Source: Lepas anatifera
Lineage: Eukaryota; Arthropoda; Thecostraca; Lepadidae
NCBI GenBank assembly: GCA_034440635.1
Contig: JAOTON010001937.1
Coordinates: 1 to 64,000, forward strand
Length of the DNA: 64,000 nt
Reading direction: 5' to 3'
Shown: one piece after another, positions 3,640 through 64,000 of the stretch
Numbering within the stretch: the first letter of the stretch is position 1
How the letters are laid out: each line of letters begins with the position of its first letter
Notes under the pieces: model-generated
The model's database searches: none
What the model saw: only the letters and a program-made list of their open reading frames with translations
Told to the model about the DNA's origin: nothing
Position numbers and translations under genes: made by a program

Positions 3640-4110
3640 GGTGGAGGGTGGCCCAGCTGTTCTTCTGTCAGGGTGATGACAGGTCTGCTCTGTTCCGTGT
3701 TGCAGCTGCTGCCGGGCACCCTGTGGCGGTGGGGAGTGGGTTTGGTGTTCTTCTGTCTGGGTTATGACCGGTCTACTCTGTTCCGTGTTTCAGCTGCTGC
3801 CGGGCACCCTGTGGCGGTGGAGGGTGGTCCAGCTGTTCGTCTGTCAGGGTGATGACCGGTCTGCTGTGTTCCGTGTTGCAGCTGCTGCCGGGTACCCTGT
3901 GGCGGTGGAGGGTGGTCCAGCTGTTCGTCTGTCAGGGTGATGACCGGTCTGCTCTGTTCCGTGTTGCAGCTGCTGCCGGGCACCCTGTGGCGGTGGAGAG
4001 TGGGTCTGCTGTTCGTCTGTCAGGGTGATGACCGGTCTGCTCTGTTCCGTGTTGCAGCTGCTGCCGGGCACCCTGTGGCGGTGGAGAGTGGGTCTGCTGT
4101 TTTTCTGTCT
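3640..4110 (+). repeat. 88-bp tandem repeat carrying five apparent splice acceptors
   Basis: Five copies of an exactly 88-bp unit. Each contains a pyrimidine-rich stretch ending in TTCCGTGTTGCAG (one copy TTTCAG), with the AG at 3705, 3793, 3881, 3969 and 4057, followed by CTGCTGCCGGGCACCCTGTGG. After the last acceptor the sequence runs into the long hexosaminidase reading frame. Because 88 is not a multiple of three, each upstream acceptor would shift the frame; three units (264 bp) would not. Inference: tandem duplication across an intron-exon boundary. Confidence 0.8.
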
Positions 4111-5923
4111 GGCCGGCCTGGGCACCGTCACCTACCTCAGCTCTCTGGAGAGGAGAGGCTCCACCTCTGTCGCCGTGCCGGCAACTCACCGCCAAACGCC
4201 GACTGTCCAACAGTGGAACCGGCGTGCTGCTCAGGAGCGCACCTACCGTGACCTGAGCGTGCAGCCACCTCGCCCAAGGGGAGATGGCGCTCAAAGCGGG
4301 TCCGGGAGAGAGCGCTGGTGGCGGGGGGAGGATCCAGTGCCACCGCCACGCCAGCAAGTGACGATCCCGCCACGACGGGTCATTCACTTCGACCTGAAGG
4401 GCGCGCCCCCAAAAATGTCGTACCTGACAGGCTTACTCCCGATGATCCGCATGCTGGGTGGCACAGATCTGCTGGTGGAGTGGGAGGACATGTTTCCGTT
4501 CTGGGGTTCGCTGCGGTCTGCAGCGGCACGCAACCACTACACCAGAGCAGAGGTGCGCCAGCTGCTGTCTGAGGCACGTCGCAACGGCCTACACGTGATC
4601 CCACTCGTACAGACGTTCGGCCACATGGAACCCTTTCTAAAGCTTGAGCAGTTCTCAGCGCTACGTGAAGTTCCCGCCCAACCTGCCGCGCTCTGTCCGT
4701 CCAAGAACCAATCGATGCAGCTGGTACAGCGAATCATAGACCAAATCATGGAGCTTCACAGGGGTGCTTCTTTTCTGCACATTGGCTGCGACGAAGTGTA
4801 CCACATGGGTATGTGCGAGCTCTGTCAGCGTCGCATGAGAGATGACCTGTACCTGGACCACGTGGTTGGGGTGGCTCGGTACGTGCGGCAACGGTATAGC
4901 GTCACTCCTCTCATTTGGGACGACATGATACGACACATAGCTGTGGACGCTCTGCAAAGCTCTCCAGATCGGCCAGCTGGTGGAGCCGATGGTGTGGGTG
5001 TACGCGGAGGATGTTTATCGCTTCGTGGGTCCACAGGTGTACTCCAACTTTGCGCAGGTATTCCCTCGCGTATGGGGGCCAGCGCGTATAAGGGCGCGTT
5101 CGGCGAGACACTGATGGCACCGCCGCTACAGAGACACCTGGACAATACACTCAACTGGCTGAAAGTTATCCAAAACGAGGGTCCGAGCTTCTCTGAAGGT
5201 TTTCGGGGCCTGGTGCTGACTGGGTGGCAGCGGTATGACCACATGGCAGTGCTCTGTGAGATCCTGCCAGTCTCAGTCCCCTCCATGGCGCTGAATCTTC
5301 TCACAGCTTCTTATGGCTTCTTCAACGCCTCCTCACACAAGGCCCTATACGATGCCTTAAAGTGCGGAGACCAGTACGGCAGGAGCTACATGAATCTGGA
5401 GGGAGATCCATATGGCTTCATCACCTTCTCGCGCTGCACCTTCCCGGGACACGAGTTCTTCCGCTACATCAGCCAGCTGATGGCGACGTTAACACGAACG
5501 AAGGAGACATTCAAAGCAGCTCAGAGCAAAGGATGGCTAACGGAATACAGCATTGAGCGTAACTACACTAATCCTTTCCGTGTGGACGAGATTCTAGACT
5601 CGTTCTATGGCGTCGAGTACTCGCTGAGAGATGCGGTGACGTCGGCCCGCGATGCCCTGCAGGGCGTGGTGGATCGCTTTACGGTGGCGGAGTGGGTGGA
5701 GCAGAAGCTGTTGCCCTGGCTGCGGCGACTGCAGTCGCTGCGGCGTCACGGCGAGTCCCTGAAGAGGCGCTCAGTGTGGCGGCGTCGGCCGCTGCCTATG
5801 CTTGCCGAGCTGGCCGCCTATGGTTTGAACGTGACCGAGAACAGGCAACGAGGCGACGTGGGCCGACGCCGCGCGCACAGCGACCTACAGTCACGGCCGC
5901 ACAGTGCACCCCGCCAAACTTAG
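4025..5923 (+). CDS. HEXD: Hexosaminidase D-like GH20 glycosidase, membrane-anchored, with two frameshifts
   Basis: A 632-residue frame from the ATG at 4025; the coding exon may instead start after the acceptor ending at 4057. Residues about 16-40 form a hydrophobic stretch after an Arg/Trp-rich start, suggesting a type II signal anchor. The GH20 domain begins near residue 117 (RRVIHFDLKG) and carries the catalytic Asp-Glu pair in HIGCDEVYHMGMC at residues 256-257. GH20 hexosaminidases remove terminal beta-linked GlcNAc/GalNAc; the D subtype matches best by its HFDLKGAPP start and single-domain layout. Residues about 313-350 are out of frame: one extra C at 4964-4965 and one missing G in the run 5074-5078 would explain it, and the family-like sequence (QIGQLVEPMVWVY) is in the other frame. 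This is either a sequencing error pair or a compensated mutation. The C-terminal extension is basic. No other exon was located. Confidence 0.85.
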   Translation: MMTGLLCSVLQLLPGTLWRWRVGLLFFCLAGLGTVTYLSSLERRGSTSVAVPATHRQTPTVQQWNRRAAQERTYRDLSVQPPRPRGDGAQSGSGRERWWRGEDPVPPPRQQVTIPPRRVIHFDLKGAPPKMSYLTGLLPMIRMLGGTDLLVEWEDMFPFWGSLRSAAARNHYTRAEVRQLLSEARRNGLHVIPLVQTFGHMEPFLKLEQFSALREVPAQPAALCPSKNQSMQLVQRIIDQIMELHRGASFLHIGCDEVYHMGMCELCQRRMRDDLYLDHVVGVARYVRQRYSVTPLIWDDMIRHIAVDALQSSPDRPAGGADGVGVRGGCLSLRGSTGVLQLCAGIPSRMGASAYKGAFGETLMAPPLQRHLDNTLNWLKVIQNEGPSFSEGFRGLVLTGWQRYDHMAVLCEILPVSVPSMALNLLTASYGFFNASSHKALYDALKCGDQYGRSYMNLEGDPYGFITFSRCTFPGHEFFRYISQLMATLTRTKETFKAAQSKGWLTEYSIERNYTNPFRVDEILDSFYGVEYSLRDAVTSARDALQGVVDRFTVAEWVEQKLLPWLRRLQSLRRHGESLKRRSVWRRRPLPMLAELAAYGLNVTENRQRGDVGRRRAHSDLQSRPHSAPRQT

Positions 5924-19273: not shown

Positions 19274-22200
19274 TTATAGAAACTTCTCTAGCCCAGAGTC
19301 CTTTAGAAATGTAAAGAGTTTTTCGAGTAGCTCAGGATGGTCGTTACCGAGCAGAGTTTTTAGGTCTACAGGGATGTTTTGGATTCGGCAGTAATCTAGC
19401 ATGGGTTGCCGATGGGTATTGTGCTGGGGACAATTGGTGAGAATGTGATAGGGATTCTCCATTGCGTCGCAGGTACCACAGGTACCCTCGTTCCAATAGG
19501 CATTTAATTCTGTGTGTCCATTTCTGAGTCTGGTTAGAATAACCTCGCGCCGGCGACTCTTTTGGTTGGAACTGGGCCAGTAGCCGATGTTAGGCTTGAT
19601 ATAGAATAGGTGGGCGCTGTGGTTTGTTGTCCAGTTATTTTGAATTTGCTTCCGGATACTGTCCTGGAGGAGAGCTTTGCTATCATCTCCAGACCACATT
19701 AAGGGTGCGATCTCTCTAAGTTCTAGGGACTTTTTTGCCTGCTCATCGGCCTTTTCATTTCCTTGAATTTTGCAGTGGCCCGGGATCCAAAGAAAAGAGA
19801 CATCAGGGGTATCATCGATACCTTTCTGAATATCTGCTATAACGTGGTGGCTGGGGTTGACTACGTCACTGACGGCCTGCAGGACAGATTTAGAGTTGAA
19901 CAGATGGCGGCTGAGTTGATATTTTGGGTTCTGATTATGGCTAATGCATCTAGGATGGCAACAGCCTCGGCTGTGAAGATAGAGCAGTTGTCCGGAAGTC
20001 TTTTCTGTAGGCAAATATTTTGACCCAGATGCCGAGGCCTACTTTTTCGCCTATTTTGGAGCCGTCTGTAAATATAAAGGTCTTGTCCGCGTTACAAGAT
20101 CGGAACTCTAGGAATTGCTGGGAGACTTCTTCCTCTGAGAAGTCCGTTTTACGGGAAGTGAAAAGAAATTCCACTTTGGGCTCTTTCCGAGTCCAGAAGC
20201 GGGAGAGTGGGGTTTGCCTATTGTTGCTGGCAGTGCAAAATTTAGGCCTTCCAGGGTTTTGCTACTCTGTGCTTAAATGGGGGCCACTTCGGTAGAGTGG
20301 CTTTATTTGCTCGTCTGGGATGGGCGAAACATTGTTTTGCCGGGTGGTTTTCGGTGGATTGGACCTTAATGTAGTAAGAAATAAGCTGGGCGTCGCGTCT
20401 TGTCTGCAGTGGGCATAGCCTGCTGTCAGTTAGCAGGCTGGTGCTGGGGGATTCTCTGAGCGCGCCTGTGGCTGCCCGGATACTGGCATTTTGGACTCCC
20501 TCTAGCTTTAGTTTATTGGTCTTGTTCGTCGAGTCAAAAACGAACGAATTATACTCGAGAATGGACCGTATCAGGGACTTGTAGAGCATAAGCAGGGTCT
20601 TTCGGTCCCCGCCATACTCTGTGCCGCCGAGCATGCGGAGAATGTTGACTCGCTTTTGACAGCTAGAGACGACTTTGGTGATATGCTCATTGAAACTCAA
20701 TCGGGAATCTAGGGTGACGCCCAAGAATTTGAAGCTATTGGTGCATTCAATAGGTTTACCCGAGATTTGGAGCCGTGGAGGGTCGTGTCTGGAATGCGCT
20801 CTGGCAAAGACAACGACTGATGATTTTTCCGCCGAGAGTGATAGATCCATTAAACTACACCAATTATCGATGTCGTTTAAGCTATCCTGCAACTGCGTAG
20901 TTGCATGTTGAAATTCTGGTTCATTATACCGCCTGGTATCGATTGCAGTGGATTTCCAAATGGCGACATCGTCCGCAAAATGGGAGTAATTTATTCCAGG
21001 CGGTAGCTTTTTGGCAAAGAGATCATTGATCATTACTAGAAAGAGGGTGGGGGACAGAACGCTACCCTGGGGTGTGCCTTGGTCTTGGGTTGCCAGGTAG
21101 GAGAATGTGGTGCCACAACGGACTTTAAATTTTCGGTCCTTGAGGAAGTTTTCAATGAATTTTGCAAGGTGGCCACGAATTCCTAGCTTGCTTAATTTAA
21201 ACAAAAGGGCGTCTTTTTGTACGCGATCGAACGCCGATTTAATGTCTAAGAATGCAGCTATTGTTACTTGCTTTTTGTAAAAGCCATTCTGGATGTCACT
21301 GACTAGTTTACCAAATTGTCAGTGGTGGCTCGCCCGCGCCGGAAGCCTGATTACATAGCATCAAGTTTCTTTTCGAGGATCTTGTGAAGTCTAACGTTTA
21401 CCATGCGCTCGACAAGCTTGCTAGCACAGCTAGTAAGCGAAATTGGGCGATATCCTTTTGGGTCTGTTTTTTCTTTGCCAGGTTTTGGAATGGGAATGAT
21501 AATACTCTCTCGCCACGATGTGGGGAAAGAGTCGCTAAGAAACATGTTGTTAATGGCCCAAAGCAGGTACTTTAGTGCTGTTTGGCTGAGGTGCCTGAAG
21601 AAAGAGTAGTGAATTTCGTCAGGGCCCACTGCAGTGTTTCCACACTTGCCAATGGCGTAATTTAGCTCGGTCATTGTAAATGGTACGTTATAGTACTCTT
21701 GATTACCATAATTGATGAATGTGTGCTTTTGCACCATTCTGCCTGGTCTTTGGAGCGCTGGCTGTATGAGTTATTAGCTGCGACACTGGCGTAATGATCA
21801 GCAAATTTATCCATGACTTCCTTAGGTTCGGTGATGGGTTGGCCAGCTATTTTTAGTTGAGGGAAAGGTCCACGGGGTGGCCGCTTCGCAGAGAAAGCTC
21901 TGATGGTTTTCCAAACTTGGGTGGTGGGAGTGAAGCGGTTGAATTTGGAGGCAAAAGAGTTGAACTGTCCTTTTGAACCCGCTTGCACGTGTTTCGAAAG
22001 TGTTCTTTTGCTGCCCGAAGTGCACATCGAGTAGGGCTGTGTGCCCTCCTCTCATATGCCTTGCGGGCTCTTATCATTTGAGCTTTGGCGTGTGCCGTCT
22101 CTACGTTCCACCATGGGGCTCCGTTTTTCTTTCGGGGTCCTCTGGTTTTTGGTATTGCTACTTGTGCTGCTGAGCTTATGGCTCTTAGTATTAATTCAAT

Positions 22201-33975: not shown

Positions 33976-35045
33976 TGTTAAAAAATTTCCATCCGTGGCT
34001 GTCTACTCCATCGTGCGAAGACGAAAGAAAGCGCGTAGTTACGAAAAATCCCGTCAAAGCAGCCTCAGCATCAACTAATCACAACACTGGAGATGAACGC
34101 TCGTCTACAACCAATCAAACATCCTGTTCTATCCGACCGGAAGCCCACATCCCAGCCAGTGCCGTGACATTGCATGATGCTTTCATTTCACATGCAGTCA
34201 GTTGTCAGCGCTTAGAGCTCGTTCGTGGATTAGACGGGACACGGATAGTCAAAGTGCCTAAGACTGGTTGCTAGTGTGGCGGTATGAAGTGCTTAGCCTG
34301 TTGATTTATTATTGAGGTGGTAGCATGCATAAGCGTCGCCACCGTAAAAAAGTGAGCGGGCCAGTCAAACTTCAACCTGATGCTGACAGCAAACTTTCCA
34401 CTTTAGTACCAAAAACTTATCGAATTTGGGCTCCTGGTTGCCTTCCGCAGCGGCTGGTTATACAAATTTCCGGTTTAATCCCATTTTGACTGAGATCAGG
34501 AAATTTTTGGTCAAAAAGTTTGGAGGGTGATTGATGATGATAAAAATTGTTCTGGTTATGTAGATAAAATCGTTCGATGGCCATGCAAAGTTGGAAGGGC
34601 ACCCCTGGCTTCCTATTAGATGCGTAGTGTGCTAAAAATATTGCGTCAAGACAATATCAAATTTTTCAACAATTAGTTTTAAACAGTGATACAAGTCGCT
34701 TTTTCTGTGGGTTTATGACTCCGGCTAGGGGTCGTTTTAGCCTCACATCTGGCTTTTGTGGTGTTTATTTGGCTGTTTTAGTGGAAATAAAAATTTTCTC
34801 CTCTTCAGCCCTTTTCTAATTTGGTTTGACCTTTTCGGCCAAAAAAACCCGGCAGCCCTGGGCAGAAACTAACAGACATGGAATAGCACAAAAATTGGAA
34901 AACATCTTTTAACACTAACGCGCCAAAGTTTTATTAAACCACCTCAAAACGGGGTCTTGAGCCCCTGAAGACACTACAATGGTCAGCACAAAAAATGCCC
35001 CCACTGACTTTTCCTTAAAAAATGCCCTGTTTTCCTTTCAAGGGA
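33976..35045 (+). repeat. Dispersed repeat R, copy 1 (possible old transposon)
   Basis: From about 34158 to 35045 this matches the reverse complement of 58919-59781 plus 61866-61883. It opens with a 99-codon frame at 33975-34274 (starting MLKNFHPWLSTPSC) of no recognised family. An AATAAAAATTTT tract near 34787 could be a polyadenylation site. It preserves the uninterrupted sequence GCATGATGC into which two CACTA-like elements inserted in copy 2. Confidence 0.6.
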
Positions 35046-38824: not shown

Positions 38825-39271
38825 CTATGCGTTGGGGTAGTTGGCCAGACACGCCTGCAGTTTGCGCCAGTACTGGGTCTGCCGTACTGATGCCTGGTTT
38901 GCCAAACAGCCTCCGGGGCCTGCCTTGTGAATCATGGCGTGATCTAAACACGACTTCTTGCCATCTTGGTTACAGTCGTATGGGTACTTGGCCATGTACT
39001 TGCGGATGATGGCTGCTGAGCAGAACGCGTCGCCAGCGCACGTCTCGAACGTCTGCTGACTGTAGGCCGGCTCGCGCCCCAGCTCGGAGTCGACCCAGAA
39101 GCCGCGCCCGATCAGGAACGGACCACACACGCCGTTGCGGCAGCCGCGGTTGACGTCACAGCTACTGGAAGCCTCGCAGATGCAGCCCAGGCACTCGCGA
39201 CTGACCAGCGGCGCATCCTGCGTCGCCGCCAGAACAACCAGCACGAGGAGCAGCAGCACCGACGCAGACAT
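38825..39271 (-). CDS. i-type lysozyme (destabilase family), secreted, intronless
   Basis: A complete 148-residue frame from the ATG at 39271 to TAG at 38825. Residues 1 to about 17 form a signal peptide (hydrophobic LLLLVLVVLAA). The mature part opens with the hallmark CLGCICEASSSC (residues 27-38) and holds an even set of cysteines, GFWVDS, ETCAGDAFCSAAIIRKYM and a C-terminal CLANYP, typical of PF05497 proteins. In bivalve members the catalytic Glu lies three residues after the CIC motif; here that position is Ser35, and the segment holding the catalytic Asp is shortened. Many arthropod paralogues share this, so muramidase activity is doubtful, while isopeptidase or other antimicrobial roles remain possible. 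There are no introns and a TATA-like box lies upstream. It looks intact and functional. Confidence 0.93.
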   Translation of the reverse strand: MSASVLLLLVLVVLAATQDAPLVSRECLGCICEASSSCDVNRGCRNGVCGPFLIGRGFWVDSELGREPAYSQQTFETCAGDAFCSAAIIRKYMAKYPYDCNQDGKKSCLDHAMIHKAGPGGCLANQASVRQTQYWRKLQACLANYPNA

Positions 39272-39320
39272 ACCTAGCGGCGGCCAGAGCACGACTGCTG
39301 CCCACCCGCACCCAGCAGCA

Positions 39321-39330
39321 TTATGTATAG
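39321..39330 (-). promoter_or_regulatory. TATA-like box of the lysozyme gene
   Basis: On the - strand CTATACATAA lies about 50 bases upstream of the lysozyme ATG. A CAGTCGT initiator-like motif sits about 30 bases downstream of it (39293-39299), which would give a 5' leader of about 25 bases. Inferred from position and consensus only. Confidence 0.5.
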
Positions 39331-39334
39331 AGTA

Positions 39335-40553
39335 GCCTGGCAGGGTTTCCCGAGATCCTGGTGACGGCGGCGCCCTTCTCCGGTGTGAGGCAGCGGCAGA
39401 TAGAACATCTCTGTAAAGAGGCGGCCTCTACCACCTGGGGGGCGCTTTTGTGCAGTGCATGGAGGACTCTTTCGGCGTAGTTTTTAGCGGCACATATGTA
39501 ATAAGTCTTGCCGGAACACAATAGGGAAAATCTGACCAAAGCGCAGAAGTTTGCTCCGGCCAGTGAACGTGCGGCAAACACTGAAAAGTGCCGGAACACA
39601 GAGTGCCTCTCCGACTCGGATGCAGACTCTGCATATTCAATGACGTTTCATACTATCGTGGCTTCTCACTGTCACCTCAACATCATAAAACATATGGGTT
39701 TAGTGCGGTAAAAGAAAAGAATACATATAAATGAGATCTATAAATTTCACTTTACACAAACCCCTGCAATTTTTAGTAAAACAAAACCGGCTAAAGTTCC
39801 ATTTAAGGCAACTACGCCGCAGAGCAGATGCATTACAATGGTGTTGAGTGTGTATTCGGTGTCTGGGGTGCCCGACACCCAAAATGGGTGGTTCTACAGA
39901 TCTTAGAAGTAGGGACGACCGCAACTTTCCTCTCCCTTGTACCCGTCCATGGCGTGAAGTCACTGCGGAAATGTAATTCGTGACAAAGTGCTGCTAGCTG
40001 TGGTGGTGTTGTGATCCTCATTCTCTGGTAATCACGTAAGCACCCGTATTTAGCGCGGAAGGGATTGTGTTGAGCGGCTCGGTAAGCGGCTTTAAGCCGG
40101 CAGACTGCATTGGCACCGGACCGCAGCTCCCGGACCTCGCTCGTCCTGCCGGCGCCAATGTCACCCGCCCAGCAGGGCTGACGTCACTCCCGGAGCTGCC
40201 GCTCAGCCTCAGCTATGTTCCCGCCCAGATTGGAGGACGCAGGCGACCGGCCCACCAGTGCACAGTAGGAACTTCCATTTTGGCCTGAATTCATTCCTAA
40301 CGATAAAATCCACGAGTGAATTCGATTGGTTTGGCTGTGAATCAGTTGACTAGTGCTAAAATGACAGCATTGAACACTGTGTTCAAATTTGAACTTGATG
40401 CGCGCAGAGGAGGGGTCATAAAGTGCCCCCGAGACTATTTTCAAAATTAGTCCCAGTAACTAAAACGGGTCTCAGCCAATGTGACAATAACTTGTTACAA
40501 TATATGAATATCGTTTCTCATTTCATAGCCTAGCACTGAAATTTACGTTCCAA
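39335..40553. other. Intergenic; GC-rich block with a TGACGTCA site
   Basis: 40060-40290 is GC- and CpG-rich and contains a perfect TGACGTCA (CRE/ATF) palindrome at 40179-40186 with CCAAT-like motifs nearby, so it could be a promoter for an unseen gene. The remainder shows nothing. Confidence 0.35.
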
Positions 40554-53690: not shown

Positions 53691-53861
53691 TGAGAAGTTT
53701 TTTTTCCAGTTTATCTTTGTATTATAAGCATAGCCCATAGTAATAGCATGAGAAAGCATTGCTGGAACATTCTTTTTCAGTGGCTTTTCAGGTGGCAGAG
53801 TTACAGCAAGCACAAAAAGCACAGCACACATAAGTAGGCTGGAATATAACACACACACATA

Positions 53862-53984
53862 CAGCAATATAAGTAACATCTTTACAAAAAGTTTTCATTT
53901 AAGAAAAAACGCAAAGACCAACGAGGAACATTCAGTGAACCCAATGAAACTCTAGGCACGACTCAAAGTATGCAACACAGGCTA
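53862..53984 (+). mobile_element. CACTA-like element E0, left remnant
   Basis: Matches the right-half interior of the family (for example 56800-56930) and resumes at 58685 after the 4.7-kb nested insertion E1. It is the oldest layer of the stack, and its own ends are not preserved here. Confidence 0.7.
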
Positions 53985-54216
53985 CACTGAGACAAATTTT
54001 TATTCCTATGTGCTCTATCTAATCCGGAATCACGGTCTGCTCGAGCATAGAATGATGCCATTAAACCTTATTCAAGGAACATTTGAGCATGCTTGCTCTC
54101 ATTAAATCCTCTCCCCAGCATAATTCCAGCACAGGAAGTGTTTTTGTAAGCCTTGACAGCTTAAAATGATTCTCGGCTTCTAAACATGATGGGAAGAAGC
54201 TTAATATGATACCAAT

Positions 54217-54591
54217 ATGGCGTTACAGGTGGGATCCTTTCTATACCAGAAAGCATCATTTAACCATAGGTGCTCGACCTATTCTAGCCGCGACATTCAA
54301 AGAGCTATTAATATCCTCTTCAATGTTTCATTTTATAGTAGGAATCAATATATTCTGTCACCAGAAATAACCAGGAATATGGGAGCTTTAGCTGCAGAAT
54401 CATTTGAAACCCCACTGTATTTTGATCCTACGTCAAAGCGTATCCGGAGATTGCGTGCGCGTGCCCGACACGCGATTGAGAAAAACTTACTCGCCGTTTC
54501 ACGCCATCTTCAATGTTCCTGCCATTACACGCAGAGCTGGCCACAAAGCTTTGGCGTCGTGGTCCGAGCGAAATTTGAGAGGAATAGCTGA
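54217..54591 (+). CDS. Open frame of unknown function in CACTA-like element E1
   Basis: 124 codons starting MALQVGSFLYQKASFNHRC. Homologous frames occur at the same place in E2 (55491-55835) and E3 (60014-60358). After about residue 91 it shifts frame relative to the others. A second overlapping frame (54404-54646) continues with WSERNLRGIADPFHFTL, so the ancestral protein was probably near 200 residues. It contains a basic KRIRRLRARARHAIEK stretch. I do not recognise a family. About 500 bases downstream, GGACAGAGGTAAGTCT is a consensus splice donor conserved in every copy, which would fit a captured gene fragment. Confidence 0.35.
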   Translation: MALQVGSFLYQKASFNHRCSTYSSRDIQRAINILFNVSFYSRNQYILSPEITRNMGALAAESFETPLYFDPTSKRIRRLRARARHAIEKNLLAVSRHLQCSCHYTQSWPQSFGVVVRAKFERNS

Positions 54592-55258
54592 CCCTTTTCA
54601 CTTTACGTTGGCACGTACTTCTACATCGATCGAACTCAGGTTTTGACCTGTGGGGCCTGAAGAAGCCACGCTGCATTTGGCATGGTTTACGGGAGAAGCC
54701 ACATCGACAGACCTAGCAGTGATAACGGATCAAGAGAAGAAGCTTAAGCTGAGTCTGATGACCGACAGACTCCGCTGAGAGCTAGCGAGAGTGAAGAAGC
54801 ATACTGGGGCTGCGACGGTTCAGGCATTCATTGTACTGGTGGCCAAAACCAGGAGTCCATGTGTGTCAGCTAGATGACGGCAACATGCACTGAAGCACCA
54901 AGTCTGGCCGCGCAGAACAGTCCTTGCTATGCAAAGTTGATGAAGTAGTGAGAAGCATCTGTTACTATTGGATACCGTCACCCACGTGTTCTAAAAATCG
55001 TTTTCAGCTCACTTTGAGCACAGATTAGGGTCGCTTAAAAAGATTGGAAGGATTTTCACGGGAGCCTCTGAACGCACGTCCATCGCTGGACAGAGGTAAG
55101 TCTAATTCTGTACAAAATCGTGCACAGAATTATATTTTCTCAGCCATGACGAAATACTCTGAAGCAAACATGTCTAAAATTATATCTATATATCCAAAGT
55201 AAACGAGGGCTGCTATCTCTGACGACAGCGGCATGTGCGTGCTTGAAGTGTAAGCCTG

Positions 55259-57374
55259 CACTGAGAGAAATTTTTATTCCTATGTGCTCTATCTAATCCG
55301 GAATCACGGTCTGCTCGAGCATAAAATAATGCCATGGAACCTTATTAAAGAAACATTTGAGCATGCTTGCTCTCATTAGATCCTCTTCCCAGTATAACTC
55401 CAGCACAGGAAGTGTTTTTGTAGGCTTTGATAGCTTAAAATGATTCTCGGCTTCTAAACATGGTGGGAAGAAGCTTAATATGATACCAATATGGTATTAC
55501 AAGTGGGATCTTTTCTACACCACAAACCATCATTTTACCATAGGTGCTCGACCTATTCTAGCGACGAAATTGAAAGAGCTATTAATATCCTCATCAAAGT
55601 TTCATTTTATACTTGGAATCAATATATTCTGTCACCAGAAATAACCAGGAATATAGGAGCTTTAGCTGAAGAATCATTCAAAACCCCAGTGTATTTTGAT
55701 CCCACGTCAAAGCGTATCCGGAGATTGCGTGCGCGTGCTCGACCCGCGATTGAAAAAACTTACTCGCCGTCTCGCACCATCTTCAGTGTTCCTGCCATTG
55801 CACGCAGAGCTGGCCACAAAGCTTTGGCGTCGTGATCCGAGCAAAATTTGAGGGGAATAGCTGACCCTTTTCACTTTACGTTGACACGTGCTTCTACATC
55901 GATCCAACTCAGGTTTTACGCTGAGGGGCCTGAAGAAGCCACGCTGCATTTGGCATGGTTTACGGGAGAAGCCACATCGACAGACCTAGCGATGATAACG
56001 GAGAAGCTTAAGCTGATCAAGAGGTCAAGCTTAAGCTTAAGCTGATCAAGAGGAGAAGCTTAAGCTGAGTCTGATGACCGATAGACTCCGCTGAGAGCTA
56101 GCGAGAGTCAAGAAGCATACTGGGGCTGCGAAGGTTCAGGCATTCATTCTACTGGTGGCCAAAACCAGGAGTCCGTGTGTGTCAGCTAGATGACGGCAAC
56201 ATGGACTGAAGCCCCAAGTTTGGCCGCGCAGAACAGCCCTTGCTATGCAAAGTTGATGAAGTAGTGAGAAGCATCTGTTACTGTTGGAGACAGTCCACAG
56301 TAACACTCAAGTGTTCTAAAGATCGTTTCAAGCTCACTTTGAGCACAGATTAGGGGCGCTTAAAAAAGATTGAAAGGATTTTCACAGGAGCCTCTGAACG
56401 CACGTCCATTGCTGGACAGAGGTAAGTCTCATTTTGTACAATATCGTGCACAGAATGATATTTTTCAGCCATGACGTGATACTTTGAAGCAAACATGTCT
56501 ACAATCATATCTATATATCCAAAGTAAACGAGGGCTGCTATCTCTGACGACAGCGGCATGTGCTTGAAGTGTAAGCCTGGACCGCTCCTGGGCGATATGG
56601 AAGAGGACTGTTAATTAAAGGCATTTCATGTGTGTCCGAAAAATGGTGAACGTGATTGTTGTTTAATGTTTGTGTTCCAATACAAAGTTACGATTATGTT
56701 ATCTTTTCTCGAGGCTAGAGTGGACTGCGGCAAACAAATTGGATTACCCTCATTATCATCAGACAAAGTCAATGTAATAGCAAGGCCACAACAGCACGAT
56801 AAGTAACATCTTTACAGAAAGTTTCAATTTAAGAAAAAACACGAAGACTAACGAGGAACATCTAGTGAACCCAATGAAACTCTAGGCACGACTTAAAGTA
56901 TGCCACACAGACTACAGTTATGCCAGCATCAGTTTTGCTACTAGACTAATTTTATGCCAAATGCAGACTCAAAAGAGGCGGTTTCGTTTGAGGCTTGCAT
57001 CGAATTCAGTTGCCGTGTTGAGTGGAGGGGCATGTTGTTCTAAACCATGTCTCGTGGAGAGCTGGAATATAATGATTCCATGACGATTTTGCTGATGGAA
57101 TACATTGATGCCGTGGAGATTTTCTATACCGAGCCAAGACTCATTTGAAACCAGGCATCAGACATTTGATTCCCGAGCTTACGGTGATCGTTCTATGAGC
57201 TTCAGAAAACACTACGTGCTAGACTCAATCCAGTCCAAGAGATTACATTGAGTCTGCGAAGGGAATACAATGAGCCTGATTCTGCCTTATTCCAACCGAG
57301 TTTGACACCAGAATCCAGACTCGCTTTCAGCACCGACTCAGTTTAGCCAGAAGGACTCAATTTTTCTCTCAGTG
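55259..57374 (+). mobile_element. CACTA-like element E2, 2.1 kb, inserted into E1
   Basis: Ends CACTGAGAGAAATTTTTATTCC and CTCAATTTTTCTCTCAGTG. It sits inside E1 at AAGCCTG/TGGACCGCTCC, where its own copy reads AAGCCTGGACCGCTCC, giving a TG duplication (55257-55258 and 57375-57376). The left half carries the shared open frame; the right half has small conserved frames (MSRGELEYNDSMTILLMEYI). Nearly identical to E3, so recent. Confidence 0.88.
55491..55835 (+). CDS. Open frame of unknown function in CACTA-like element E2
   Basis: 114 codons starting MVLQVGSFLHHKPSFYHRC and ending in VPAIARRAGHKALAS. Compared with the E3 frame most differences change the amino acid (for example EE/AE, FD/LD, RR/RK), so there is little sign of purifying selection since the copies separated. 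The stop after ALAS comes from a G-to-A change relative to E1, where the frame continues. A second frame at 55848-56045 continues the homology. Confidence 0.3.
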   Translation: MVLQVGSFLHHKPSFYHRCSTYSSDEIERAINILIKVSFYTWNQYILSPEITRNIGALAEESFKTPVYFDPTSKRIRRLRARARPAIEKTYSPSRTIFSVPAIARRAGHKALAS

Positions 57375-57663
57375 TGGACCGCTCCTGAGCGATATGGGAA
57401 AGGACTTTTCATTAAAGGCATTTCATGTGTGTCCGAAAAATGGTGAACGTGATTGTTGTTTAATGTTTGTGTCCTAATACAAAGTTATGGTTATGTTATT
57501 TTTTTCTTGAGGCTGAATTATTCTGCGGTAAACAAATTTGATTAACCTCATTATCATTAAACAAAGTGAATGTAATAGCAGGGCCGCAACAGCACGATAA
57601 GGAACATTTTTACAGAACGTTTCAATGTAAGAAAAAAACACGAAGACTAAGGAGCAACATCTA

Positions 57664-58169
57664 GGGCTTGTTCCAGCGCCTCCATACAAAAAAGATGAGA
57701 GTAGCTTAGGGTAAGTCGGAGCAGGCGCAAGAACCGGTGTCCGCTGGAACGATTTCGGATGAGATGGGATGAGATATCAGCTGATTGCGCTTGATCAGCG
57801 CCAATATGGCGGGCTGGCGCAGCTAAGAAACTAATGGAATTTGATTAAGGCCTCTGATACTCATTTAATGTATTTTAGTGAAAGTAGAATACAGAAAAAC
57901 AACGGAATCAAAACCTTTAGCTGCCACAAACGTCGTTTCTGACTGTAAAACAACTTATTTTAGTATCTCAATCAAAATTCGTGCACCACAGTTGAGCTCC
58001 TCCAACCTCCTCTGAAAACCACCTGTCGTTTGAGAGGAGGTTGGATTAGATTTGAGATGAGCTTTGGCGAGCTTGGAGGAAGTTTAAGGAGGCGCTGGAC
58101 CGGGCGAGAGGAAGTTGAAGAAGCTTTGAGGAGGTTAGACCAGGTTTGAGGAGGCGCTGGAACAGGCCC
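57664..58169. mobile_element. Harbinger-like MITE, 506 bp, 3-bp target duplication
   Basis: Ends GGGCTTGTTCCAGCGCCTCC and, reverse-complemented, GGGCCTGTTCCAGCGCCTCC, flanked by CTA on both sides (57661-57663, 58170-58172). Intact copies of the host element read ACATCTAGTGAACC without it. GGGCCTGTT ends and a 3-bp duplication fit PIF/Harbinger. It inserted into E1's right half and encodes nothing. Confidence 0.85.
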
Positions 58170-58684
58170 CTAGTGAACCCAATGAAACTCACAGGTACGA
58201 CTCAAAGTATGCCACACAGACTACAATTATACCAGCATCATTTTTGCTACTAGACTAATTGTATGCCAAATGCAGACTCAAAAGAGGTGGTTTCGTTTGA
58301 GGCTTGCATCGAATTCAGTTGCCGTCTTGAGTGGAGGGGCATATTTTTCTAAACCATGTCTCGTGGAGAGCTGGAATATAATGATTCCATGACGATTTTG
58401 CTGATGAAATACTTGATGCCGTGGAGTGTTTCTATACCGAGCGAAGAATCATTTGAAACCAGTCATCAGACATTTTATTCCCGAGCTTACGGTGATCATT
58501 CTATGAGCTTCAGAAAACACTACGCGCTAGACTCAATCTAGTCCAAGAGATTACATTAAGTCTGCGACAGGAATACAATGAGCCTGATTCTGCCTGATTC
58601 CCACCGAGTTTGACACCAGAATCCAGACTTGCTTTCAGCACCGACTCAGTTTATCCAAAATGAATCAATTTTTCTCTCAGTGTA

Positions 58685-58918
58685 CAACTAATACCAGCAT
58701 CAGTTTTACTACTGGACTAATTGTATGCTAAATGCAGACTCAAAAGAGGCGGTTTCGTTTGAGGCTCGTATCGAATTCAGTTGCCTTTTTGAGTGGAGGG
58801 GCATATTTTTCTAATCCATGTTTCGTGGAGAGCTGGAATATAATGATATCATGACGATTTTGCTGATGGAATGCATTGATGCCGTGGAGTTTTTCTATAC
58901 CGAGCGAAAGATCATTTG
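58685..58918 (+). mobile_element. CACTA-like element E0, right remnant
   Basis: Continues E0 from 53984 (CAACTAATACCAGCATCAG) up to ATCATTTGAAAC, where repeat R begins. Its right terminus is not seen. Confidence 0.7.
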
Positions 58919-59781
58919 AAACAGGGCATTTCTTAAGGAAAAGTCAGTGGGGGGGGAATTTCTTGCTTTGGCCATTATACTGTCTTTTAGGGGTCAAGAC
59001 CCGATTTTGAGGCGTTTAATAAAACTTAGACGTGTTAGTGTTAAATAAATGTTTATCAATTTTTTAGTTATTCCAAGTCTAGAGATTATAGATGCTACCC
59101 AGGGCTGCCAGTTTTTTTCAGCGGATAAGGTCAGACCAAGTTAGAAAAAGGGCCAAACAGGGGCAAAATTTTATTTTCACTAAAATACTAAAAAAAACCA
59201 TAAAAGCCAGATTTGAACCTAAAACGACCTCTAGCGGTAGTCATAAAACCAATGAAAAAACAATTTGTATCACTGTTTAAAACTAATTGTTGACAGTTTG
59301 ATATTGACTTGACGCAATATTTTTAGCACACTACCCATCTGATAGGAAGCCAGGGGTGCCCTTCCAACCCCGCGTGGCCATGAAATGGTTTTATCCACAT
59401 AACCAGAACATTTTTTGGGATCATCAATCACCCCCCTCCACCTTTTTACCAACAATTTCCTGATCTCAGTCAAGATGGGAGTAAAACGGAGATTTGTATA
59501 ACCAGCCGCTGCGAAAGGCAACGAGGAGCCCAAATTCGTTGGTACTAACGTGGAAAGTTTGCTGTCAGCATCAGGTTGAAGTTTGGCTGGCCCCCTCATT
59601 TTTTTGCCGGTGGCGACGCTTATGTATGCTACCAACCTCAATAATAAATCAACAGGCTAAGCACTTCATACCGCCACACCAGCAACCAGTCTTACGCACT
59701 TTGACTACACCGTGTCCCGTCTAATCCACGAACGAGCTCTTAGCGCTAACAGCTGACTGCATGTGAAATGAGAGCATCATG
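58919..59781 (-). repeat. Dispersed repeat R, copy 2
   Basis: Reverse complement of about 34158-35045. A 123-codon - strand frame (59270-59641) contains MRGPAKLQPDADSKLSTLVP; the corresponding region of copy 1 is frameshifted. No family is recognised. The R sequence continues beyond E3 as the 18 bases 61866-61883, and E4 then interrupts it again. Confidence 0.75.
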
Positions 59782-61865
59782 TACTGAGATAAATTTTTAT
59801 TCCTATGTGCTCTATCTAATCCGGAATCAGGGTCTGCTCGAGCATAAAATGATGCCATGAAACCTTATTAAAGGAACATTTGAGCATGCTTGCGCTCATT
59901 AGATCCTCTTCCCAGCATAATTCCAGCACAGGAAGTGTTTTTGTAGGCCTTGACAGCTTAAAATGATTCTCGGCTACTAAACATGGTGGGAAGAAGCTTA
60001 ATATGATACCAATATGGTATTACAAGTGGGATCTTTTTTACACCACAAAGCATCATTTTACCATAGGTGCTCGACCTATTCTAGCCACGAAGTTGAAAGA
60101 GCTATTGATATCCTCATCAAAGTTTCATTTTATACTTGGAATCAATATATTCTGTCACCAGAAATAACCAGGAATATGGGAGCTTTAGCTGCAGAATCAT
60201 TCGAAACCCCAGTGTATTTGGATCCCACGTCAAAGCGTATCCGGAAATTGCGTGCGCGTGCTCGACCCGCGATTGAAAAAACTTACTCGCCGTCTCGCAC
60301 CATCTTCAGTGTTCCTGCCATTGCACGCAGAGCTGGCCACAAAGCTTTGGCGTCGTGATCCGAGCAAAATTTGAGGGGAATAGCTGACCCTTTTCACTTT
60401 ACGTTGACACGTGCTTCTACATCGATCCAACTCAGGTTTTACGCTGAGGGGCCTGAAGAAGCCACGCTGCATTTGGCATGGTTTACGGGAGAAGCCACAT
60501 CGACAGACCTAGCGATGATAACGGAGAAGCTTAAGCTGATCAAGAGGAGAAGCTTAAGCTGAGTCTGATGACCGACAGACTCCGCTGAGAGCTAGCGAGA
60601 GTCAAGAAGCATACTGGGGCTGCGAAGGTTCAGGCATTCATTGTACTGGTGGCCAAAACCAGGAGTCCATGTGTGTCAGCTAGATGACGGCAACATGGAC
60701 TGAAGCCCTAAGTTTGGCCGCGCAGAACAGCCCTTGCTATGCAAAGTTGATGAAGTAGTGAGAAGCATCTGTTATTGTTGGATACAGTCCACAGTAACAC
60801 TCACGTGTTCTAAAGATCGTTTTAAGCTCACTTTGAGCACAGATTAGGGGCGCTTAAAAAGATTGAAAGGATTTTCACAGGAGCCTCTGAACGCACGTCC
60901 ATTGCTGGACAGAGGTAAGTCTCATTTTGTACAATATCGTGCACAGAATGATAGTTTTTCAGCCATGACGAGATACTTTGAAGCAAACATGTCTACAATC
61001 ATATCTATATATCCAAAGTAAACGAGGGCTGCTATCTCTGACGACAGCGGCATGTGCTTGAAGTGTAAGCCTGGACCGCTCCTGGGCGATATGGAAGAGG
61101 ACTGTTCATTAAAGGCATTTCATGTGTGTCCGAAAAATGGTGAACGTGATTGTTGTTTAATGTTTGTGTCCTAATACAAAGTTACGATTATGTTATCTTT
61201 TCTCGAGGCTGGAGTGGACTGCGGCAAACAAATTGGATTACCCTCATTATCATGAGACAAAGTCAATGTAATAGCAAGGCCACAACAGCACGATAAGTAA
61301 CACCTTTAAAGAAAGTTTCAATTTAAAAAACACGAAGACTAACGAGGAACACCTAGTGAACCCAATGAAACTCTAGGCACGACTCAAAGTATGCCACACA
61401 GACTACAATTATACCAGCATCAGTTTTGCTACTAGACTAATTTTATGCCAAATGCAGACTCAAAAGAGGCGGTTTCGTTTGAGGCTTGCATCGAGTTCAG
61501 TTGTCGTGTTGAGTGGAGGGTCATGTTTTTCTAAACCATGTCTCGTGGAGAGCGGGAATATAATGATTCTATGACGATTCTGCTGGTGGAATACATTAAT
61601 GCCGTGGAGTTTTTCTATACCGAGCGAAGACTCATTTGAAACCAGGCATCAGACATTTGATTCCCGAGCTTACGGTGATCATTCTATGAGCTTCAGAAAA
61701 CACTACGTGCTAGACTCAATCCAGTCCAAGAGATTACATTGAGTCTGCGAAGGGAATACAATGAGCCTGATTCTGCCTGATTCCAAACGAGTTTGACACC
61801 AGAATCCAGACTCGCTTTCAGCACCGACTCAGTTTAGCCAGAAGGGCTCAATTTTTCTCTCAGTG
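59782..61865 (+). mobile_element. CACTA-like element E3, 2.1 kb, inserted into repeat R
   Basis: Left end TACTGAGATAAATTTTTATTCC (first C mutated to T), right end CTCAATTTTTCTCTCAGTG, with TG on both sides (59780-59781, 61866-61867). Repeat R copy 1 shows the undisturbed site, reverse-complemented GCATCATGCAATGTC. It is full length with no nested insertion, so it is the best reference copy. Confidence 0.88.
60014..60358 (+). CDS. Open frame of unknown function in CACTA-like element E3
   Basis: 114 codons, same start and stop context as in E2 (MVLQVGSFLHHKASFYHRC to AGHKALAS), with a second short frame (60371-60562) continuing the homology. It may be the 5' part of an element protein or of a captured host gene. 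No domain recognised. Confidence 0.3.
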   Translation: MVLQVGSFLHHKASFYHRCSTYSSHEVERAIDILIKVSFYTWNQYILSPEITRNMGALAAESFETPVYLDPTSKRIRKLRARARPAIEKTYSPSRTIFSVPAIARRAGHKALAS

Positions 61866-61883
61866 TGCAATGTCTCGGTACTG

Positions 61884-64000
61884 CACTGAGAGAAAAATTG
61901 AGTCTTTCTGGATAAACTGAGTCGGTGCTGAAAGCGAGTCTGGATTCTGGTGTCAAACTCGGTTGGAATCAGGCAGAATCAGGCTCATTGTATTCCCGTT
62001 GCAGACTCAATGTAATCTTTGGACTAGATTGAGTCTAGCAAGTAGTGTTTTCTGATGCTCATAGAGTGATCACTGTAAGCTCGGGAATACAATTTCTGAT
62101 GACTGGTTTCAAATGATTCTTCGCTCGGTATAGAAAAACTCCACGGCATCAATGTATTCCATCAGCAAAATCGTCATGGAATCATTATATTCCAGCTCTC
62201 CACGAGACATGGTTTAGAAAAATATGCCCCTCCACTCAACACGGCAACTGAATTCGATGCAAGCCTCAAATGAAACCGGCTATTTCGAGTCTGCATTTGG
62301 CATAAAATTAGTCGAGTAGAAAACTGATGCTGGTATAATTGTAGTCTGTGTGGCATACTTTGAGTCGTGCCTGGACTTTCATTGGGTTCACGAGATGTTT
62401 CTCGTTAGTCTTTGTGTTTTGTTCTTAAATTGAAACTTTCTGTTAAGATGTTACTTATCGTGCTGTTGTGGCCTTGCTATTACATTAAATTTGTTTAATG
62501 ATAATGAGGGTAATCCAATATTTTTTTACCGCAGTCTACTTCAGCCTCAAGAAAAGATATCATAATCATAATTTGTATTAGGACACAAACATTAAATAAC
62601 AATCACGTTCACCATTTTTCGGACATACATGAAATGCCTTTAATGAACAGTCCTCTCCCATATCGCCCAGAAGCTTACACTTCAAGCACATGCCACTGTC
62701 GTCGGAGATAACAGCCCTCGTTTACTTTGGATATATAGATATAATTGTATACAGGTTTGCTTCAAAGTATTTCGTCATGGCTGAAAATTTCTCATTCTGT
62801 GCACGATGTACAGAATGAGACTTACCTCTGTCCAGCGATGGACGTACGTTCAGAGGCTCCTGTGAAAATCCTTCCAATCTTTTTTAAGCGCCCCTAATCT
62901 GTGCTCTGAGTGAGCTGAACACGATCTTTAGAACCCGTGGGTGACTGTATCGAACAGTACCAAATGCTTCTCACTACTTCATCAACTTTGCATAGCAAGG
63001 GCTGTTCAGCGCGGCCAAACTTGGGGCTTCAGTGCATGTTGTTGTCCTCTAGCTGACACACATGGACTCCTGGTTTTGGCCACCAGTACAATGAATGCCT
63101 GAACCGTCGCAGCCCCAGTATGCTTCTTCACTCTCGCTAGCTCTCAGCGGAGTCTGTCGGTCATCAGACTCAGCTTAAGCTTCTTCTCTTGATCCGTTAT
63201 CACCGCTAGGTCTGTCGATGTGGCTTCTCCCGTAAACCATGCCAAATGCCGAGAGGCTTGTTCAGGCCCCTCAGGTCAAAACCTAAGTTGGATCGATGTA
63301 GAAGCACGTGCCAACGTAAAGTGAAAAGGGTCAGCTATTCCTCTCAAATTTCGCTCGGATCACGACGCCAAAGCTTTGTGGCCAGCTCTGCGTGCAATGG
63401 CAGGAACACTGAACACTGAGAGAAAAATTGAGTCCTTCTCGCTAAACTGAGTCGGTGCTGAAAGCGAGTCTGGATTCTGGTGTCAAACTCGGTTGGAATC
63501 AGGCAGAATCAGGCTCATTGTATCCCCTTCGCAGACTCAATTTAATCTCTTGGACTGGATTGAGTCTAGCACGTAGTGTTTTCGGAAGCTCATAGGATGA
63601 TCACCGTAAGCTCGGGAATCAAATGTCTGATGCCTGGTTTCAAATGAGTCTTCGCTCGGTGTAGAAAAACTCCACGGCATCTATGTATTCCATCAGCAAA
63701 ATCGTCGTAGAATCATTATATTCCCGCTCTCCACGAGACATGGTTTAGAAAAACATGACCCTCCACTCAACACGACAACTGAACTCGATGCAAGCCTCAA
63801 ACGAAACCGCCTCTTTTGAGTCTGCATTTGGCATAAAATTAGTCTAGTAGCAAAACTAATGCTGGTATAATTGTAGTCTGTGTGGCATACTTTGTGTCGT
63901 GCCTAGAGTTTCATTGGGTTCACTAGATGTTCCTCGTTAGTCTTCGTGTTTTTTTAAATTGGAACTTTCTTTAAAGGTGTTACTTATCGTGCTGTTGTGG
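61884..64000 (-). mobile_element. CACTA-like element E4, opposite orientation, runs off the window
   Basis: Begins CACTGAGAGAAAAATTGAGTC after a TG at 61882-61883; repeat R copy 1 shows the empty site CACTGGCTGGG, again at TG. Its right half (61884 to about 62660) and part of its left half (to 63413) are present before another element starts. It lies 18 bases from E3 in inverted orientation, forming a long inverted repeat of about 1.5 kb arms. Confidence 0.8.
63414..64000 (-). mobile_element. CACTA-like element E5, inserted into E4, incomplete
   Basis: CACTGAGAGAAAAATTGAGTCC begins inside the left half of E4, directly after GGAACACTGAA, where intact copies read GGAACACTGAAGATGG. The window ends before the far terminus. 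The expected duplication would be AA. Confidence 0.75.

What the first reader, a model, noticed from the sequence alone, without database searches (positions are those of the whole stretch)
53862..64000. Matryoshka of a CACTA-like family inserted repeatedly into itself
At least six related elements (E0-E5) lie in 10 kb. E1 is inside E0 (TA duplication), E2 is inside E1 (TG duplication at a site whose intact form is seen in E2 itself), E3 and E4 are inside one repeat R (TG, confirmed by R copy 1), and E5 is inside E4. Ends are CACTGAGAGAAA and target duplications are 2 bp, mostly TG. Such self-targeting suggests a local target preference or a heterochromatic trap. The family assignment rests only on termini and duplication length.
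Basis: partly seen in the sequence, partly recalled or inferred. Interest (0 to 1): 0.75.

Follow-up and report, generated by a model that had tools for sequence, protein, structure and literature searches.

The report
Jumping genes nested in their kin
In what looks like a barnacle genome, a family of short non-coding jumping genes has repeatedly landed inside or right beside its own copies, apparently because copies cluster locally and carry the short mirror-symmetric sequence that the family prefers to land in.

Summary
The nest is real, with one exception. E1 lies in E0 (TA duplication), E2 in E1 (TG), E3 in repeat R (TG; empty site in R copy 1) and E4 in R (one flank seen). E5 inside E4 is not supported: beyond E5's far end (65,473, outside the window) neither E4 nor a matching duplication follows. 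The elements are about 2.1 kb, with no coding sequence recognised, in a 1.04-Gb crustacean genome (best named lysozyme hit: the barnacle Pollicipes). Genome-wide, CACTGAGAGAAA occurs 1,594 times (reversed control 151). Of 19 element-sized pairs of ends, 15 have a perfect 2-bp duplication; TA is commonest (7 of 15) but not obligatory. This fits the CACTA/Mirage/Chapaev supergroup, but no transposase was linked to these ends. The target preference is palindromic, C-N3-C-TA-G-N3-G; learned outside the window, it ranks the five self-insertion sites scored in the top 5% of the element. Copies are clustered about 70-140-fold within 3-10 kb. In 25 places two ends abut across exactly 2 bp (4 bp: 3 places). 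Local clustering plus target preference explains most of this; a broad heterochromatic trap is less likely, and IS30-like targeting of own ends is not excluded.

The parts
53856..53984 (+). E0, part 1 (interior of an old, truncated E copy; left limit at an AC microsatellite)
   Evidence: blastn 81-89% to other copies; alignment
58683..58929 (+). E0, part 2 (continues after E1; 58683-58684 TA is the duplicated target; truncated at R)
53985..58682 (+). E1, inserted in E0, TA duplication (53983-53984 / 58683-58684); itself interrupted by E2 and by a 506-bp foreign element
   Evidence: the same E position is occupied by an E end at C1065 (read) and, by pattern match only, at C1277 and C1501
55259..57374 (+). 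E2, inserted in E1 at TG (55257-55258 / 57375-57376); complete, 2116 bp
   Evidence: target ranks 6 of 2102 positions by the target model
57664..58169 (+). 506-bp unrelated DNA element in E1, TIR GGGC(Y)TGTTCCAGCGCCTCC, duplication CTA (Harbinger-like by form only, recalled)
   Evidence: sequence
58926..59781 (+). R, copy 2, left part (target of E3)
   Evidence: 84.7% to R copy 1 over 884 aligned columns
59782..61865 (+). E3, inserted in R at TG (59780-59781 / 61866-61867); 2084 bp; left end mutated to TACTGAGATAAA
61866..61883 (+). R, copy 2, 18 bp between E3 and E4
   Evidence: matches R copy 1
61884..63413 (-). E4, inserted in R at TG (left flank only); truncated at its inner end where E5 begins
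63414..64000 (-). E5 (continues outside the window to contig position 65473); flanks AA / TA do not match and E4 does not resume
34157..35025 (-). R, copy 1: the uninterrupted target, shows the empty sites of E3 and E4

Best explanation
E0-E5 are copies of one non-autonomous cut-and-paste DNA transposon family. [quoted passage not shown] a transposase supplied in trans is inferred, not seen. The integration machinery prefers a palindromic site, C-N3-C-TA-G-N3-G (shown from ordinary insertions). The E sequence contains good matches to it, and an element end followed by a TA duplication scores about 15-23-fold above the average site. New insertions also lie within a few kb of older copies far more often than chance (shown, about 70-140-fold), most likely by local reinsertion after excision (inferred). 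Together these give nests inside copies, reuse of a previous duplication as target (two ends exactly 2 bp apart), and clusters like this one. The window's array grew by successive arrivals from different sublineages: E0 is the most diverged copy, and E2, E3 and E5 belong to the youngest group. The E4/E5 contact is a later or aberrant event such as a deletion.
For: Junctions and empty sites. 1,594 exact ends against 151 for the reversed pattern; E-left 390 and E-right 463 copies at up to 2 mismatches, controls 0. 15 of 19 pairs with matching 2-bp flanks; chance match 0.24, P = 7e-7. Target half-site in 63 ends: T, A, G at positions 1-3 (P 3e-10, 2e-11, 5e-6) and G at 7 (P = 0.005); counted once per insertion, T 29 and A 32 of 44; without my hand-made exclusions, 74 ends, same bases, G at 7 P = 0.011. 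The five self-insertion sites scored rank 31, 6, 37, 14 and 83 of 2,102, Fisher P = 2e-6; with the two other ways of building the model, ranks 2-92, P 2e-6 and 3e-6. Clustering: 9 pairs within 10 kb against 0.1 expected, 14 against at most 0.19. End-to-end junctions: 11 places exact at spacing 0-30, control 0; 25 places at spacing 2 and 3 at spacing 4, up to 3 mismatches, controls 0. Three-deep nest elsewhere, at C884. No codon-position bias in 14 copies; for the longest frame no Pfam match above cut-off, no PDB match to E = 10, no protein match to E = 1. Sublineages: E2, E3 and E5 are 96.7-97.9% alike; E4 is nearest to a copy elsewhere (96.1%). CMCT termini (CA..TG in most cases, 2-5 bp duplications) and a CACTG-ended fungal CMC element are in print (PMC12730594, PMC12810828; passages).
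Against: No autonomous copy was found. The three Transposase_21 matches (one gene family) do not bear these ends in the stretches read. Published animal TRC/CACTA ends begin CCC, not CACTG (PMC1636069, PMC4298943, passages). Clustering times sequence preference predicts about 600-3,000-fold for exact end-to-end junctions, whereas about 10,000-fold is seen, so something may be missing. 4 of 19 pairs lack matching flanks, and so does the second element at L023 (TA/CA). Only 1 of 77 tested ends lies by another copy, so self-insertion is a minority outcome. Pairs in the clustering lists are not all independent (each list's pairs fall in 7 contigs). Local hopping was not observed, only inferred.
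Confidence: 0.72

Rival explanations
1. The element's machinery actively recognises existing ends as targets, as bacterial IS30 does, so that new copies are steered to the 2 bp beside an old end, in addition to ordinary palindromic targets.
For: 25 places at 2-bp spacing against 3 at 4-bp spacing. About 10,000-fold excess of exact junctions over chance, more than clustering times sequence preference predicts. Spacer TA in 20 of 25 against 24 of 44 ordinary insertions, P = 0.04. Of the seven exact junctions at 0-2 bp, the second element's far end was in the fetched stretch in five, and there its own duplication equals the spacer (L021, L025, L028, L030, and L022 with a mutated end in a complex locus); L026 and L027 were not seen to their far end.
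Against: Own end plus TA already scores 15-23-fold by plain sequence. Orientations are mixed (L-L, R-R and L-R in the loci read), whereas IS30 IR-targeting gives only IRL-IRR (PMC9333248, passages). Some of the 25 places are probably duplicates of each other (C794 twice, C1706 twice, C1295/C1887 identical).
Confidence: 0.2
2. Heterochromatic or neutral-region trap: insertions are random but survive only in gene-poor DNA, so copies pile up.
For: Older copies are truncated; the left-end list has 4 pairs at 30-100 kb where about 0.7 is expected.
Against: Most of the excess lies below 30 kb (right ends: 21 pairs within 30 kb, 22 within 100 kb). A domain-wide trap would spread over longer distances, and neutral DNA is too common to give a 70-140-fold excess (inference).
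Confidence: 0.12
3. Segmental or tandem duplication: the clusters and abutting copies arose by copying DNA, not by insertion.
For: Some loci are duplicates (L037-L040 share flanks; the C794 junction is repeated 98 bp apart; C1706 is a direct tandem). C1065 and C1277 share a site variant.
Against: In the window E1, E2 and E3 each have their own duplication and an intact counterpart of the target, and copies belong to different sublineages, E4 being closer to a copy elsewhere.
Confidence: 0.08
4. The family belongs to another superfamily (PHIS, Tc1/mariner or a new one) and only resembles CMC in its ends.
For: TA is the commonest duplication; no CMC transposase was linked; TA-duplicating PHIS-type elements exist (PMC12730594, passage).
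Against: Duplications include CA, AA, TT, CT, CC, CG, GA and TG, against an obligate TA; the end begins CAC.
Confidence: 0.2

Closest known systems
CACTA/EnSpm and the wider CMC(T) supergroup
   Same: Ends begin CA and finish TG; 2-bp duplications; a fungal CMC member (CNIRT6) has CACTG ends (PMC12810828, passage); that non-coding derivatives are common in such families is recalled
   Different: The plant CACTA element Tgmt* makes a 3-bp duplication (PMC2613891, passage); animal TRC elements begin CCC (PMC1636069, passage); no transposase was tied to these ends here
IS30 (bacterial insertion sequence)
   Same: 2-bp duplications, nearly palindromic hot-spot target, insertion next to own ends (PMC9333248, passages)
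   Different: IS30 junctions are only IRL-IRR and arise from circular intermediates; here all orientations occur and the inserted copy has its own duplication; eukaryotic, non-coding
Self-insertions and multimers of P, Ac/Ds and MITEs
   Same: New copies land in or beside old copies (PMC4744444, passages); alternative-end reactions of Ac are known (PMC3744419, search listing and abstract start only); MITE nests are recalled, not read
   Different: Other superfamilies with other duplication lengths (recalled)

Membership tests
CACTA/EnSpm (CMC supergroup) | Terminal inverted repeat beginning CACTA or, more widely, CA..TG | tested here: met
   CACTGAGAGAAA at both ends of 19 of 19 pairs chosen by that motif; 1,594 exact occurrences, reversed control 151. 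The fifth base is G, so the strict CACTA motif is not met; the wide CMCT rule is
CACTA/EnSpm (CMC supergroup) | 2-3 bp target duplication, not restricted to TA | tested here: met
   15 of 19 pairs match; nine dinucleotides among 26 matched targets
CACTA/EnSpm (CMC supergroup) | Transposase (Transposase_21/TNP2 type) encoded by a copy with these ends | tested here: inconclusive
   PF02992: 3 matches of 9 candidates, one gene family; no exact end, only scattered 2-3-mismatch matches, around two of them, and about 1.5 kb each side read for the third. Frames of the long copies L009 and L032-L036 were listed; only two frames of L035/L036 were put to Pfam, both reverse transcriptase
CACTA/EnSpm (CMC supergroup) | Subterminal repeats | tested here: inconclusive
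   GACTCA 6 times in the right 520 bp; the highest of 200 shuffles also reaches 6
Tc1/mariner | Obligate TA duplication (recalled) | tested here: not met
   TG, CA, AA, TT, CT, CC, CG and GA also occur
IS30-like end targeting | Insertion next to own ends | tested here: met
   25 places at spacing 2, 3 at spacing 4
IS30-like end targeting | Only left-right end junctions | tested here: not met
   L-L in L022 and L025; R-R in L028, L030 and L088; L-R in L026 and L027

The most novel reading that the evidence does not exclude
An animal CMC-type transposon whose transposition complex treats its own ends as a second class of target, reusing the 2-bp duplication of an older copy (IS30-like dual target choice in a eukaryote). 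Nests and end-to-end arrays would then be built actively and could transpose on as composites; C1065 and C1277 may be one such composite.
Probability: 0.18. Interest if true: 0.7.

Novelty: new member of a known kind. Interest (0 to 1): 0.42.

Why it matters
It turns an anecdotal nest into a quantified case: a target rule learned from ordinary insertions predicts where the family inserts into itself, and separates sequence preference from short-range clustering. It also gives end sequences, copy numbers and a target rule for repeat families in a crustacean group for which, according to the Pollicipes genome paper, no comprehensive repeat library was available (PMC8917513, passage). If the residual excess at exact ends holds, it would make self-targeting by a eukaryotic DNA transposon directly testable.

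Tried and rejected
E5 inside E4: rejected. Coding capacity of E: the 186-codon frame with one stop gave no match above cut-off in Pfam, PDB or the protein collection, and 14 copies show no codon-position bias. Long pairs of ends as autonomous copies (7.5, 8.8, 16.2 and 16.8 kb): frames listed, two put to Pfam, both reverse transcriptase; the rest judged by eye only. A 28.6-kb pair on C118 (298869/327482, TA on both sides) was not read. Transposase_21 genes: not linked. The 22-mer of the left end in prokaryote contigs and the 21-mer of the right end in viral contigs: 0 each. Subterminal repeats: not above shuffles.

Rows dropped before counts and corrections: the target model uses 63 of 77 ends; 11 were dropped by hand because their inner bases matched no other end (possible chance 12-mers) and 3 as repeats of another flank. 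38 of the 63 are the two sides of 19 insertions, so the duplication was counted twice there; recounted once per insertion, and also without the hand exclusions, the result stands, but the TA excess at junctions weakens from P = 0.016 to 0.04. In one search one site (C884, second level) was scored one base out of register and ranked 1592 of 2070; the aligned boundary (E 1-149) fixes the duplication at 148-149, and one search gives rank 37. The flank test used 77 of the 100 listed ends. The clustering lists hold only the first 100 exact ends each (of 390 and 463 at up to 2 mismatches) and stop at contigs C1563 and C1273 of 2126; the left-end expectation uses the whole genome and is somewhat low, the right-end one was also computed for half a genome.
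Full report
What was checked. The 10-kb stretch was read and compared with itself. Six related stretches are present. E1 (53985-58682) interrupts E0, E2 (55259-57374) interrupts E1, and E3 (59782-61865) interrupts the repeat R, each with a 2-bp duplication (TA, TG, TG). R copy 1 at 34157-35025 on the minus strand shows the undisturbed target of E3, and the undisturbed target of E2 is visible in E2 and E3 themselves. E4 begins at 61884 beside a TG that R copy 1 also shows. An unrelated 506-bp element (57664-58169) also sits in E1.

What was not confirmed. The window ends inside E5. The contig continues (window = C1812:1-64000; contig 1,542,364 bases), and E5 ends at 65473. In the next 8 kb there is no match to E2/E3 nor to R copy 1 or the E array, and the 2-bp flanks of E5 (AA and TA) differ. 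E4 is truncated exactly where E5 starts. This looks like a deletion or an aberrant event, not a clean insertion of E5 into E4.

Where it comes from. The genome holds 1,044,440,039 bases in 2126 contigs. An i-type lysozyme in the window (38825-39427, minus strand) is 98% identical to an unnamed contig protein; its best named match is Pollicipes pollicipes at 63%, followed by Amphibalanus amphitrite (7 matches listed). A barnacle or a near relative is therefore likely; the species was not determined.

The family genome-wide. CACTGAGAGAAA occurs 783 + 811 times against 81 + 70 for the reversed pattern. The 22-bp left end of E occurs 390 times and the 22-bp right end 463 times at up to 2 mismatches, controls 0. 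Among 19 pairs of ends at element-like distance, 15 have matching 2-bp flanks. By eye, at least four families share the 12-bp end and differ beyond it. The 14 copies of E compared differ by 2-8% from their majority; E2, E3 and E5 belong to a young group with copies elsewhere, and E4 is closest to a copy elsewhere. The array is therefore best read as separate arrivals.

No protein. No coding sequence was recognised in E: Pfam gave only sub-threshold matches (E 0.08 or worse), PDB none to E = 10, the protein collection none to E = 1, and its variation shows no codon-position bias. The family is treated as non-autonomous. The CMC assignment rests on ends and duplications; CMCT elements in most cases end CA..TG with 2-5 bp duplications (PMC12730594, passages) and one fungal CMC element begins CACTG (PMC12810828, passages). 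Animal TRC elements with 2-bp duplications begin CCC instead (PMC1636069, PMC4298943, passages). Three Transposase_21 matches exist in the genome, but their surroundings as read bear no such ends. Membership is therefore likely, not shown.

Target rule. In 63 ends outside the window (both sides of 19 elements, 25 single ends), the flank read outward from the element is T (41 of 63), A (43 of 63), G (31 of 63) at positions 1-3 and G (24 of 63) at position 7. Seen from both sides, in 26 matched targets that include E1-E3, this is C-N3-C-TA-G-N3-G. Scoring the E sequence with the 63-end rule places the five self-insertion sites that I scored at ranks 31 (E1 in E0), 6 (E2 in E1), 37 and 14 (C884) and 83 (L022, a complex locus) of 2,102. 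Two other ways of building the rule give ranks 2 to 92, Fisher P 2e-6 and 3e-6, and about 6-7e-6 without L022. The E1-in-E0 site is also used at C1065 (read) and, by pattern match, at C1277 and C1501. C1065 and C1277 share a variant and may be one event, so about three independent uses are likely. That search returned 14 places at up to 3 mismatches, several of them intact E copies; its reversed control gave 6.

Clustering. Of the 100 listed exact left ends, 9 pairs, in 7 contigs, lie within 10 kb against 0.1 expected; 11 within 30 kb and 15 within 100 kb against 0.3 and 0.9. Of the 100 listed exact right ends, 14 pairs, in 7 contigs, lie within 10 kb against at most 0.19 expected; 21 within 30 kb and 22 within 100 kb. 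The excess is thus mostly below 30 kb, with a weaker tail in the left-end list. A second deep nest, three levels, is at C884, read at its two edges. Of 77 ordinary ends tested, 76 do not lie by another copy; the 23 listed ends left out of that test include the nested or abutting loci L021, L022 and L031.

End-to-end junctions. Two exact ends lie within 30 bp in 11 places, the window's E3/E4 pair among them, control 0; about 0.02 are expected. Six have exactly 2 bp between them and one has 0. At up to 3 mismatches there are 25 places with 2 bp and 3 with 4 bp. The spacer is TA in 20 of 25, against 24 of 44 ordinary insertions (P = 0.04). Of the seven exact junctions at 0-2 bp, the far end of the second element was in the fetched stretch in five, and its own duplication equals the spacer in all five (L021, L025, L028 and L030, and L022 with a mutated end). 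At L023, where the spacer is 16 bp, the second element's flanks differ (TA/CA). At C794 both flanking copies are bounded by TA on both sides. Orientation is mixed. The observed excess at exactly 2 bp is about 10,000-fold, and clustering times the sequence score of an own end gives about 600-3,000-fold. Most of the effect is thus explained without special end recognition, but a remainder of a few-fold is not.

How it most likely works. Shown: insertion with 2-bp duplications, palindromic target preference, short-range clustering, prediction of self-insertion sites by that preference. Inferred: trans-acting CMC-type transposase, cut-and-paste movement, local reinsertion as the cause of clustering. 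IS30 is the closest analogue in behaviour (dual targets, 2-bp duplications; PMC9333248, passages), but its end junctions are only left-right, so this is not IS30-like in that respect.

Novelty. Nested and self-inserted DNA transposons are well known; the family itself appears undescribed. A search for barnacle with CACTA gave 4 papers, none on transposons judging by their titles and abstract starts, and the Pollicipes genome paper states that no comprehensive repeat library was available for barnacles (passage). It is filed as a new member of a known kind.

Noticed in passing
57664-58169: 506-bp element with inverted ends GGGC(Y)TGTTCCAGCGCCTCC and a CTA duplication inside E1; Harbinger-like by form.
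   Followed up: partly
L081, L082, L083 (C201, C1782, C1676): Three similar (about 97-98%) copies of a gene with a Transposase_21 domain (723-aa open frame at C201); ends unknown, perhaps a recently active animal CACTA/TRC element.
   Followed up: partly
G000:C118:298869-327482: Opposed ends of what looks like one CACTGAGAGAAA family, TA on both sides, 28.6 kb apart: possibly one giant element.
   Followed up: no
L089 (C1706:101800-104300): Direct tandem of another CACTGAG family, about 1.86-kb units separated by TA.
   Followed up: partly
L088 (C794), around 2666-2765: 98-bp duplication of an end-to-end junction with a (TTTAG)8 repeat in it.
   Followed up: no
38825-39427 (-) and 3944-5923 (+): i-type lysozyme (Destabilase) exon and a Glyco_hydro_20 domain frame; the lysozyme points to a barnacle-like host.
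   Followed up: partly
20242-21318 (-): Reverse transcriptase frame (RVT_1) of a retroelement.
   Followed up: no
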